A DNA stretch of 42,343 nucleotides from Candidatus Nomurabacteria bacterium GW2011_GWB1_40_7 (lineage in GTDB: Bacteria > Patescibacteriota > Minisyncoccia > Phycocordibacterales > UBA9973), in the NCBI GenBank assembly GCA_000994705.1, contig LBZL01000001.1, forward strand, positions 11,207 through 53,549, given 5' to 3'. How positions within the stretch are numbered: position 1 is the first letter of the stretch; every line of letters begins with the position of its first letter. A model generated the notes under the pieces. It saw nothing but the letters and a program-made list of their open reading frames with translations. It searched no databases and was not told where the DNA came from. Below are positions 35,962-37,950 of the stretch, in pieces. The position numbers and the translations under genes are program-made.

Positions 35962-36610
35962 TTAATTTATGTACTTTAGAATTTCTCCTTCTAACCTTTT
36001 GGCATTGCCATGTCTAAGTAGCCCCAAATAAGATTGCACGGTATCAAAATTTCCTCGTTTCTTTTTTATACCATGAAACATCCTGCGTTTTGTTATAGTC
36101 CTTACTACTCTATGGTCTGGAAACAAAACCCAACCCAAAAAGTCCACACCTGAAGCGACAGAGCTTATAGATAATTTTGCTGGATGCAAAGAAAGTTTGA
36201 GTTCATTTTCCAGAAAATATTTTATTTTAACTTACCTTCTCAAGCCATTTTCTATCTTGAAACAAAATTACAAAATCGTCCGCATAGCGAATATAATATT
36301 TCGCTTTGATTTTATGTTTCATAAATTGGTCAAATTCATTCATGTAAATATTTACCAGCAGTTGTGAAGTTAAATTACCCAGTGGCAAACCCTTCTTGCA
36401 TATATCAGCGATAGCGTATATATGTTTTTGAGAAGAAAAGCTATCTATCACCTGTCCCAACAACCAAAGAATGTCTTTATCCTGTATATATTTTTCCAAA
36501 ATTGATTTTAAAATGTTGTGATCAATGTTCGCAAAGAATTTTTTGATGTCTCCTTTTAAAACCCAAACGGCTTTCGTATGGTTTTTTGATACTTGATACC
36601 TTGAAAATAC
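35962..36610 (-). pseudogene. DGR-type reverse transcriptase, truncated and frameshifted
   Basis: Two frames make one RT. The first (about 36603-36222) has LKGDIKKFFANIDHNIL, KGLPLGNLTSQLLVNIYMNE and YYIRYADDFVIL; GNLTSQ instead of the group II intron QGGxLSP is the mark of DGR enzymes, and YADD is the catalytic centre. After WLEKVS one extra T brings a stop; skipping it gives KIKYFLENELKLSLHPAKLS, then GVDFLGWVLFPDH to the end. The N-terminal 100 or so residues (early RT motifs) are missing: similarity stops near SKNHTKAVW, where an Avd-like fragment begins on the other strand. Sequencing error cannot be excluded for the frameshift but not for the missing end. Confidence 0.85.
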
Positions 36611-36762
36611 TTCTGATGGTGTTGTGGGAAGCAAAATCAATAGACGATAAAAAATATATTGCTCTGTCTGTAAAAATAGAAGAAATTGGAAAGATGCTCG
36701 GGGGTTGGAATGGACAGCTCCTAAAACAAAACTCTCCCGCCGTAAGGACGAGAGAGAAATGA
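36595..36762 (+). pseudogene. Avd-like four-helix-bundle fragment (C-terminal part)
   Basis: An open frame without a start, 55 codons, reading DTLKILLMVLWEAKSIDDKK, then KIEEIGKMLGGWNGQLLKQN and TGA. The pattern (helix with LW-E-K, KKYIALS, IGKMLGGW) is that of the C-terminal helices of DGR accessory protein Avd / S23-type four-helix bundles. The N-terminal half is absent; upstream the frame runs antisense into the RT remnant. It ends 8 nt before the template repeat. Orientation is opposite to the RT, which is unusual. Confidence 0.55.
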
Positions 36763-36770
36763 AGTGATTT

Positions 36771-36895
36771 GCGGAGGAGGCAGCGGGGTTGTTGTCGTTC
36801 CAATCGTTGTCGAGCCAGTTGTAGTTCGAGATGACCTTGCCCTCGTTCCAGTACCCATACCGGACATACAGGTTGCCGTTCGACGGGTTGCGGAA
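36771..36895 (-). repeat. DGR template repeat (TR)
   Basis: 125 bp. Compared with the variable repeat at 37232-37356 it differs at 18 positions; in every case the template base on the minus strand is A. The template is rich in AAC/TAC codons, e.g. ISNYNWLDNDWNDNNPAA, typical for maximising diversity at A. The 18-bp A-free end (GGGG...CCGC side, 36771-36788) is identical in both and is the expected initiation site of mutagenic homing. Confidence 0.96.
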
Positions 36896-37139
36896 ATATG
36901 TAAGATGCCTTCCGTGCCACCACCCCTTGAATGCTCTCGAGGTTGTATCGTATTTGGCATCTTTAATGCCCTAGCACCTTACACCAAGTAACTTCATTTT
37001 TGAAGTGTCTACGTATATCACCCTATTTGAAACCTTAGTCGCAAATACTCTCGATATACGGATACTGGATTCGGTAGCGAGAAACCGTAGTCGCCCGCGT
37101 ATTCACCTACTACCATATTTATTTTATCAAAATAGAAAC
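36896..37139 (-). ncRNA. Presumed TR RNA upstream region
   Basis: No convincing gene lies here. On the minus strand, upstream of TR, small hairpins are seen: ACTTC/GAAGT and GGCAT-TAAAG-ATGCC. DGR template RNAs need flanking structured sequence, so this is probably the 5' part of the TR transcript; the exact ends are unknown. A 32-codon frame near 37018-37113 lacks support. Confidence 0.4.
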
Positions 37140-37168
37140 AAAAATGCCCCTTCCTTTCGGTTGGGGCA
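37140..37168 (-). terminator. Terminator after the DGR target gene
   Basis: On the minus strand TGCCCC / GGGGCA, 6-bp stem with a 12-nt loop followed by TTTTT, 60 nt after the target gene stop. Confidence 0.75.
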
Positions 37169-37211
37169 CCCGTTATACGCACATCGGGAGAGCGGTTGGC
37201 CAAAATTGGCC

Positions 37212-37229
37212 GATCTGAGCGCTAAGATC
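37212..37229. repeat. Inverted repeat just downstream of the variable repeat
   Basis: GATCTGAGCGCTAAGATC, palindromic except for one G/A pair, starting 3 bp after the variable repeat and overlapping the stop codon. In phage BPP-1 a hairpin/cruciform a few bases after VR promotes retrohoming; this has the same place. Confidence 0.65.
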
Positions 37230-37787
37230 AAGCGGAGGAGGCAGCGGGGAGGTTGACGAGCCAAGCGCCGTCGAGCCAGCGGTAGCTCGAGATGACCTTG
37301 CCCTCGCTCCAGCACCCACACCGGACACACAGGTCGCCGTCCGACGGGTCGCGGAAGATATCATCCCAGAAAACCTGACTGTCCTTCTTCCAGTTTTCCG
37401 GGTAGAGTTCGGGGTGTTCGACGAGGTAGTCGAGCACCTTTGCACTCACGTTTCCGCCTCTCTTCTCGAGCTCCTTGCGGAGGGTGTGGCCTTCGACCAT
37501 CTTCCCATTCTTCTGCTTACGCGAGAAAAACAGGCCGAGTGGCTTACCGTTGAGGCAGAGGTCGTCTCCGCGACGTTCGAGCTTGACGATACCCGCACCG
37601 CGGTGAACTTCGAGCACGGCGCCGTCAAACGGCAACCGGGCCGGTGAACCGAGGTCGATCACGTGATCGATCGGCTTGATCTCGTGCGTGCCGTGGAGCA
37701 CGCCCAAGATGGCGGAGAGCTTGTCCTCGTGGCCGTGATTGCGAGCTCGTGAGAAACTCCGACACTAATTTCGGACGCGGTTGCCAT
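37228..37787 (-). CDS. DGR target protein with C-terminal variable lectin-like domain (apparent frameshift)
   Basis: The ATG at 37787 has a Shine-Dalgarno (AAAGGA) and reads MATASEISVGVSHELAIT. Near 37733-37737 the frame must slip by one base to continue as GHEDKLSAILGVLHGTHEIK and on to the stop at 37228. Otherwise only a TTG at 37707 could start the main frame. About 185 residues. The C-terminal part (DGDLCVRCGCWSEGKVISSY) is the C-type-lectin-like scaffold holding the diversified residues; VEGHTLRKELEKRGGN precedes it. No signal peptide is visible. Codons are GC-rich. Confidence 0.85.
37232..37356 (-). repeat. DGR variable repeat (VR)
   Basis: 125 bp at the extreme 3' end of the target gene. 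It changes 14 residues relative to the TR reading (N to D, S, R, G or L; Y to C; D to A or V), for example ISNYNWLDNDW to ISSYRWLDGAW. There are no differences at non-adenine template positions. Confidence 0.96.
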
Positions 37788-37861
37788 TTGGCACATCCTT
37801 TCTTTGACACATCCCGTCAGGACGCATCGGTTAGGTTTTTGCCAGAGGACCAACCACTACG

Positions 37862-37914
37862 GTGGTCATAGCCATAAAATTCCGAACATGTCAGAATCTC
37901 GTGGCTACGACCAC
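37862..37914 (-). promoter_or_regulatory. Long hairpin in the target-gene leader
   Basis: GTGGTCATAGCCA (37862-37874) pairs with TGGCTACGACCAC (37902-37914) over 13 bp with a single wobble; loop of 27 nt. It lies in the roughly 155-nt 5' leader of the DGR target, the longest leader in the window. Confidence 0.6.
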
Positions 37915-37950
37915 ATTCAGGGGTGAATTAAGGAAAAGAACTACCTTTAA

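What the first reader, a model, noticed from the sequence alone, without database searches (positions are those of the whole stretch)
36771..37356. Diversity-generating retroelement with a purely adenine-directed TR/VR pair
The 125-bp repeats at 36771-36895 and 37232-37356 align without gaps. I count 18 differences, and all 18 are at positions where the minus strand of the template has A. Together with a GNLTSQ/YADD reverse transcriptase next door this identifies a DGR. The template is built from AAC/TAC codons and VR sits at the very C-terminus of its target. DGRs are known in CPR genomes, but this target type is uncharacterised.
Basis: partly seen in the sequence, partly recalled or inferred. 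Interest (0 to 1): 0.9.

Follow-up and report, generated by a model that had tools for sequence, protein, structure and literature searches.

The report
Crippled diversity-generating retroelement, intact structured RNA
This is the damaged remains of a bacterial system that deliberately scrambles one gene: its reverse transcriptase is half deleted, but the template and a conserved folded RNA in front of it, found here across Candidate Phyla Radiation bacteria and in no RNA catalogue searched, are intact and suggest how such systems mark their template.

Summary
The repeat pair is real: 125 bp, 18 differences, all at template adenines (31 of 125; P ~9e-14). It is a DGR signature, but not of a working DGR. 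Against ~75 CPR relatives with fixed order target–TR–avd(antisense)–RT, the window has lost ~610 bp: the 5' halves of the divergent genes avd and RT (clean junction at 36594/36595). The remaining RT is also frameshifted, and the target has a 46-bp frameshifting deletion near its start. No other RT or avd is assembled in the 93%-complete genome, but contig C19 breaks inside a second DGR.

The unexpected part lies between VR and TR: a conserved ~200-nt noncoding leader with a -10-like box and very strong covariation (34 of 36 pairs; 97% paired versus ~40% when slid). A long-range helix joins the leader to the TR 3' flank (0/50,000 permutations), followed by an intrinsic terminator. It is absent from Rfam 15, occurs across CPR, and 63 of 75 RT loci carry it. 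In phage BPP-1 the structured RNA is 3' of TR; here it is 5'. About 6 of 35 RNA loci lack a nearby RT, yet some have purely A-directed VRs, suggesting cassettes served in trans. Activity and RNA expression are not shown.

The parts
37228..37787 (-). Target gene, decayed: ATG of the MATASEIS... start at 37787, 46-bp frameshifting deletion at 37726/37727 relative to the intact 74%-identical homologue, remaining open frame 37707-37228
   Evidence: family in other DGR loci
37232..37356 (-). Variable repeat (VR), last 41 codons of the target
37198..37229 (-). Inverted repeats just downstream of VR (GATCT..AGATC, then GGCCAATTTTGGCC), candidate counterpart of the BPP-1 hairpin/cruciform
   Evidence: window alone z -1.2; mean z -2.3 over 33 loci
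37121..37129 (-). -10-like promoter box (TGATAAAAT; TATACT/TATAAT types in relatives) directly upstream of the leader
   Evidence: alignment; not tested for function
36914..37114 (-). Structured 5' leader of the TR RNA (helices 1-7), covariance model R1 hit 178.7 bits at 36954-37114
36991..36999 (-). Leader segment AAATGAAGT that pairs with the TR 3' flank
36771..36895 (-). Template repeat (TR)
36757..36765 (-). TR 3' flank ACTTCATTT, partner of the leader segment
36723..36756 (-). Intrinsic terminator (10-bp stem + TTTTGTTTT), overlaps the antisense end of avd
   Evidence: same in nearly all relatives
36595..36762 (+). avd 3' remnant (C-terminal ~55 residues of Avd), antisense to everything else; 5' half deleted
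36594..36595 (.). Deletion junction: ~610 bp lost (5' parts of avd and RT and the region between)
36227..36594 (-). RT remnant, middle part (KGDIKKFF, GNLTSQ, YADD)
35962..36219 (-). RT remnant, C-terminal part, in another frame (about 2 nt lost between the two parts)

Best explanation
The locus is an RT-deficient, decaying derivative of the CPR type of diversity-generating retroelement. Originally a promoter in front of the leader would make a short TR RNA (structured leader, TR, terminator), and the divergent avd and RT genes would make the Avd-RT complex. The leader folds into a conserved structure and pairs through a 9-bp helix with the sequence just 3' of TR, so that the TR 3' end is held next to the folded domain; I infer that this marks the RNA for the RT-Avd complex and places the start of cDNA synthesis. 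Error-prone copying at template A and homing into VR then rewrote the target's C-terminus. A ~610-bp deletion later removed the 5' halves of avd and RT, and small deletions frameshifted RT and target, while leader, TR, VR and terminator stayed unblemished. Shown by sequence: TR/VR pattern, gene order, deletion, frameshifts, RNA covariation, long-range helix. Inferred: transcription, RNA-protein binding, priming, time order.
For: 18/18 differences at template A. avd antisense to RT in 73 of 73 scorable relatives with a gap of median 608 nt (403-652) between the points that abut in the window; DNA similarity to relatives breaks cleanly at 36594/36595. Only a truncated avd and a truncated, two-frame RT in the whole held genome. 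46-bp target deletion against L105. Leader: 28 of 41 pairs with changes on both sides, 97.2% of cells paired versus 36-44% when slid; 78-row set 34 of 36 pairs, 96.9% versus 35-52% (fitted alignment). Long-range helix: cognate duplex -5.98 kcal/mol versus -4.32 +/- 0.20 permuted, 0 of 50,000, also within each subset. Leader in 63 of 75 RT loci with enough upstream sequence and phylum-wide (57 of 380 genomes). Of 36 loci chosen by RNA alone, about 29 have avd and RT next to them in the same order. 58 loci: 938 A versus 44 other TR/VR differences.
Against: TR and VR show no non-A difference at all, and the window leader scores highest of all loci, which sits oddly with a long-dead element; so the decay must be recent, or the cassette is still used in trans. 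A MAG assembly error at the junction cannot be excluded without reads. The permutation test ignores phylogeny; the A-versus-other counts in relatives come from an aligner that penalises A mismatches less. In the window a local hairpin (ACTTC-AAAAA-TGAAGT) competes with the long-range helix. RNA expression is untested.
Confidence: 0.82

Rival explanations
1. The cassette is non-autonomous but alive: its TR RNA is still copied by an RT-Avd complex made by another DGR of the same cell, probably the one whose leader is cut by the end of contig C19. (A refinement of the best explanation rather than its opposite.)
For: Second leader at C19:1-118 (120.5 bits, own target gene) ends at the contig edge so its RT/avd may be unassembled; 85% identical to the window leader. 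RT-less leader+TR+VR cassettes elsewhere keep purely A-directed VRs: L150 26 A/0 other, L121 17/0, with RTs elsewhere in those genomes; the L150 leader is 94% identical to the resident leader 42 kb away that has RT and avd, versus 77-83% to other genomes. Window TR/VR has no non-A difference.
Against: The target has a 46-bp frameshifting deletion at its start; no complete RT or avd is in the held assembly.
Confidence: 0.35
2. A complete, active DGR; the deletion and frameshifts are assembly errors.
For: The genome is a draft of 26 contigs; leader, TR, VR, terminator are perfect.
Against: Three separate lesions (deletion, RT frameshift, target deletion) all fall in the DGR while flanking ORFs such as the 628-aa and 378-aa ones are intact; the junction is clean; other genomes show like RT-less loci.
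Confidence: 0.1
3. The leader is a cis-regulatory element of the target or of avd (for example a riboswitch) and not part of the TR RNA.
For: It lies between two genes; no transcript data.
Against: It lies downstream of the target's stop and antisense to avd, 54-154 nt 5' of TR in 58 of 61 loci, with its own -10-like box, and pairs with the sequence that follows TR.
Confidence: 0.05
4. TR/VR differences arose by ordinary mutation after duplication.
For: None found.
Against: 18 of 18 at template A, P 8.6e-14; same pattern in dozens of relatives.
Confidence: 0.005

Closest known systems
BPP-1 diversity-generating retroelement of Bordetella phage (NC_005357; Guo 2011 PMC3240598; PMC12875486)
   Same: DGR-type RT, Avd, intergenic TR, VR at the 3' end of the target, A-directed change, inverted repeat after VR
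   Different: In BPP-1 mtd, avd, TR and brt lie on one strand and the structured spacer that recruits bRT-Avd and primes cDNA is 3' of TR (PMC12875486). Here avd is antisense between TR and RT, the conserved structure is 5' of TR with its own promoter-like box, TR is followed within ~15 nt by a terminator; model R1 does not match BPP-1.
CPR (Patescibacteria) DGRs, 'clade 2' of Roux et al. 2021 (PMC8144416)
   Same: Same host group, cellular; relatives of the window RT are nearly all CPR by record title
   Different: The window copy is RT- and avd-deleted; in that paper the words antisense and Avd do not occur and no leader RNA was found in the passages read
ANMV-1 archaeal virus DGR (KP703175; PMC4372165)
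   Same: DGR RT 39% identical to a full-length relative of the window RT
   Different: Target and RT on one strand in the normal order, no R1 leader
Retron msr-msd RNAs and noncoding RNAs of defence-associated RTs
   Same: A structured RNA domain joined to an RT template in a short noncoding transcript (from general knowledge)
   Different: Template here is a repeat of a protein-coding VR; the RT matches the DGR RT chain far better than retron or DRT chains

Membership tests
Diversity-generating retroelement (complete, autonomous) | TR/VR pair with changes confined to template adenines | tested here: met
   18 of 18
Diversity-generating retroelement (complete, autonomous) | VR inside, usually at the 3' end of, a target gene | tested here: met
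   but the target has a 46-bp frameshifting deletion upstream
Diversity-generating retroelement (complete, autonomous) | Intact RT of the DGR group | tested here: not met
   N-terminal ~130-140 residues deleted, rest in two frames; what remains is of DGR kind. Hence filed as an RT-deficient derivative, not as a complete DGR
Diversity-generating retroelement (complete, autonomous) | Accessory protein (Avd) | tested here: not met
   Only the C-terminal ~55 residues remain (bAvd 4.7e-06)
Diversity-generating retroelement (complete, autonomous) | C-type lectin fold of the VR domain | tested here: inconclusive
   Model of relative L041: residues 77-200 pLDDT ~85; the best solved matches are mostly C-type lectin-like domains but Z only up to 5.4
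Diversity-generating retroelement (complete, autonomous) | Inverted repeat (hairpin/cruciform) just after VR | tested here: inconclusive
   Present in the window, z -1.2; 17 of 33 loci z < -2
Diversity-generating retroelement (complete, autonomous) | Ongoing mutagenic retrohoming | not testable with these tools
   Needs reads or a culture
CPR-type DGR TR RNA (defined here by model R1) | Conserved leader structure 5' of TR | tested here: met
   178.7 bits, (the window was among the model's sequences)
CPR-type DGR TR RNA (defined here by model R1) | Leader - TR 3' flank helix and terminator | tested here: met
   9 bp, -8.8 kcal/mol; terminator 36756-36732
Any Rfam 15 family | Match at a meaningful E-value | tested here: not met

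The most novel reading that the evidence does not exclude
CPR DGRs use a self-contained TR RNA gene with a permuted layout: the structured domain is 5' of the template and reaches round by a long-range helix to the template's 3' end. Because the RNA gene is separable from the RT, RT-less cassettes of leader, TR and target exist and are hypermutated in trans; the window is one such cassette formed by deletion.
Probability: 0.5. Interest if true: 0.8.

Novelty: new variant of a known kind. Interest (0 to 1): 0.6.

Why it matters
How a DGR RT selects its template and where it primes is known in detail only for BPP-1, where the signal is 3' of TR. A strongly covarying RNA with the signal 5' of TR, present across CPR, gives a second RNA architecture, makes the recognition question directly testable in vitro, and gives a covariance model that can find TRs and RT-less DGR cassettes that RT-based searches miss. 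The window itself warns that a perfect A-only TR/VR pair does not prove an intact DGR.

Tried and rejected
Other TR/VR copies of this template in the genome: none beyond the pair. Local hairpin of the leader J segment: not conserved in all loci, replaced by the long-range helix; a first version of that test used poor anchors for several loci and was redone. The 18-bp difference to L105 just before VR was first taken for a deletion, but other family members have the same short form, so only the 46-bp deletion is counted. Programmed frameshifting in RT rejected because the N-terminal part is missing altogether. Rfam snoRNA hits of E ~4 are chance. Target fold search gave no confident match. Literature on a leader RNA or RT-less DGR cassettes: none found in the held open-access library; Paul et al. 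2017, the main CPR DGR paper, is not held, so prior description cannot be excluded.

Full report
Observation. The window holds one long direct repeat in 30-42 kb, 125 nt at 36771-36895 and 37232-37356, ungapped, 86% identical. On the minus strand the 36771 copy (TR) and the 37232 copy (VR) differ at 18 positions, every one an A in TR; TR has 31 A in 125 bases, so P = 8.6e-14. VR is the end of an ORF at 37228-37707(-).

What stands next to it. Minus-strand ORFs at 36640-36227 and 36189-35962 carry RT sequence (Pfam RVT_1 1.4e-15, PHROG RT 2.2e-45 for the first), but similarity to relatives starts only at about residue 16 of the first ORF. On the opposite strand 36595-36762 encodes the C-terminal ~55 residues of an Avd protein (bAvd). 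In the relatives (20 of 41 genomes of the neighbourhood, 80 loci of mostly CPR genomes) the order is target - TR - avd on the other strand - RT. In 73 of 73 loci that can be scored avd is antisense to RT, and the two points that touch in the window lie a median of 608 nt apart (403-652). DNA alignments to relatives end at 36595 from the avd side and 36594 from the RT side. So one deletion took the 5' halves of avd and RT and the start region between them. About 2 nt are also missing between the two RT parts, which puts them in different frames. The closest target homologue (L105, 74% aa identity, intact 211-aa ORF) shows a 46-bp gap in the window about 60 bp after the start codon, which shifts the frame. 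The whole held genome has no other RT or avd.

The leader. DNA conservation did not stop at TR: about 240 bp upstream of it are roughly 70-83% identical to relatives, with no conserved ORF. The conserved block starts GGTAGTAGGTGAAT a few bases after a TGATAAAAT/TATACT-like box. On an alignment of 30 loci made by sequence alone (A1), RNAalifold gives a structure with 29 of 43 pairs supported by changes on both sides; counted as 41 pairs in seven helices, 28 have changes on both sides and 97.2% of cells pair, against 36-44% when the 3' partners are slid by 1-3 columns. A covariance model (R1) extends this to 78 distinct sequences: 34 of 36 pairs with changes on both sides, covariation score 0.66 versus 0.24 shuffled (this second alignment is fitted to the model). 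Rfam 15 has no match.

Long-range helix and terminator. In the window AAATGAAGT in the leader (36999-36991) is the exact complement of ACTTCATTT just 3' of TR (36765-36757), which is followed at once by a terminator hairpin and TTTTGTTTT (36756-36723). Across 64 distinct loci the two segments fit each other better than permuted partners: mean duplex energy -5.98 versus -4.32 +/- 0.20, 0 of 50,000 permutations; also 0 of 50,000 within loci that keep TGAAG and within those that do not. Examples with changed but matching arms: L043 GTGAG/CTCAC, L076 ATGAAGG/CCTTCAT, L032 AAAGAAA/TTTCTTT, L030 AACAAGA/TCTTGTT. Nearly every locus has the same CTC...GAG-TTTTGTTTT terminator. The permutation does not correct for relatedness, but the divergent examples look like independent changes.

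Association. The leader is found in 63 of 75 RT loci with at least 1250 nt upstream; the failures are mostly of a divergent RT group. Starting from RNA hits alone, about 29 of 36 loci have avd and RT beside them in the same order. In 58 of 61 loci TR lies 55-154 nt after the model end and VR 83-192 nt before the RNA start; TR/VR differences total 938 at A and 44 elsewhere (the aligner favoured A mismatches, so the ratio is somewhat inflated; the window's own pair was found by an unbiased tool). The model hits 90 of 297 genomes of the order and 57 of 380 drawn from the phylum and none of three virus DGR records.

RT-less cassettes. L121, L125, L132, L133, L136 and L150 have the leader but no RT within ~1.3-1.5 kb downstream and no full avd. 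L150 has 26 A and 0 other TR/VR differences, L121 17 and 0, L132 3 and 1; L133 has lost TR. Genomes of L121, L125, L132, L133 and L150 have RTs elsewhere (for G168 only a distant one); in G401 the RT-less leader is 94% identical to that of a copy 42 kb away that has RT and avd, and 77-83% identical to most leaders of other genomes. In the window's genome, contig C19 starts inside a second leader (120.5 bits, 85% identical), preceded by its own target gene (187 aa), and contig C17 has a third target followed by a remnant of the leader's first hairpin. An intact RT could lie in the gap at C19.

Mechanism. Shown: pattern, order, deletion, RNA structure, long-range helix, terminator sequence. Inferred: the leader recruits the RT-Avd complex and the helix brings the TR 3' end to it, so this RNA would do with a 5' domain what the 3' spacer does in BPP-1 (PMC12875486: the spacer 3' of TR folds, recruits bRT-Avd and primes cDNA). 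VR lacks the ACTTCATTT flank, which could keep the target mRNA from being used as a template.

Membership. As a complete DGR it fails on two tested features (intact RT, Avd), so it is filed as an RT-deficient derivative of a CPR-type DGR. It works, or worked, like a DGR. The DGR kinship of the RT rests on the full-length relative L061: best solved match 8ub7_A at E 1e-46, next 2.5e-21; that 8ub7 is the BPP-1 complex is from my own knowledge.

Target. Family without Pfam, NCBIfam or PHROG match, found upstream of TR in about nine other loci. A model of L041 (A4) is confident only for residues 77-200 and its best solved neighbours are mostly C-type lectin-like domains at Z about 4-5, in line with the fold known for DGR targets (PMC8144416) but not proof.

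Limits. No reads, no expression data, no culture. Paul et al. 2017 on CPR DGRs is not in the held library, so the leader may have been noted before; it is at least not in Rfam 15 nor in the papers searched.

Noticed in passing
L146 (own genome contig C19) 1-863: Second DGR of the same genome: 187-aa target of another family (ends ...VVVGWVWLGVGWSSRGPALRFSK) and a leader RNA cut by the contig start; TR, avd and RT not assembled.
   Followed up: partly
L147 (own genome contig C17) 4229-5082: Third DGR-like target (225 aa, VR-like C-terminus) followed only by the first hairpin of the leader (35.7 bits): a remnant.
   Followed up: partly
L150, L121, L132 (other CPR genomes): RT-less leader+TR+target cassettes, two of them with purely A-directed VRs; possible non-autonomous DGR elements.
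   Followed up: partly
60 nt after VR in L066, L072, L053, L075 and others: Long imperfect hairpin after VR built of ~5-bp stems separated about every 7 nt by symmetric 2-nt mismatches; possible cruciform with a regular ladder, unlike the short BPP-1 hairpin.
   Followed up: partly
L105 (G039) 1495-2130: Target gene 74% identical to the window's, in a different family of the order, with no leader or RT match in that genome: a lone target, perhaps spread by transfer.
   Followed up: no
window 37200-37950: Target region is 58-61% G+C against 40% for the window and 33% for the RT remnant, as if template and target have a different compositional history.
   Followed up: no
L093-L099, L015, L017: A divergent group of CPR DGR RTs (about 46-54% identity) with the same avd orientation but no or only partial R1 match; may have a diverged leader.
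   Followed up: no
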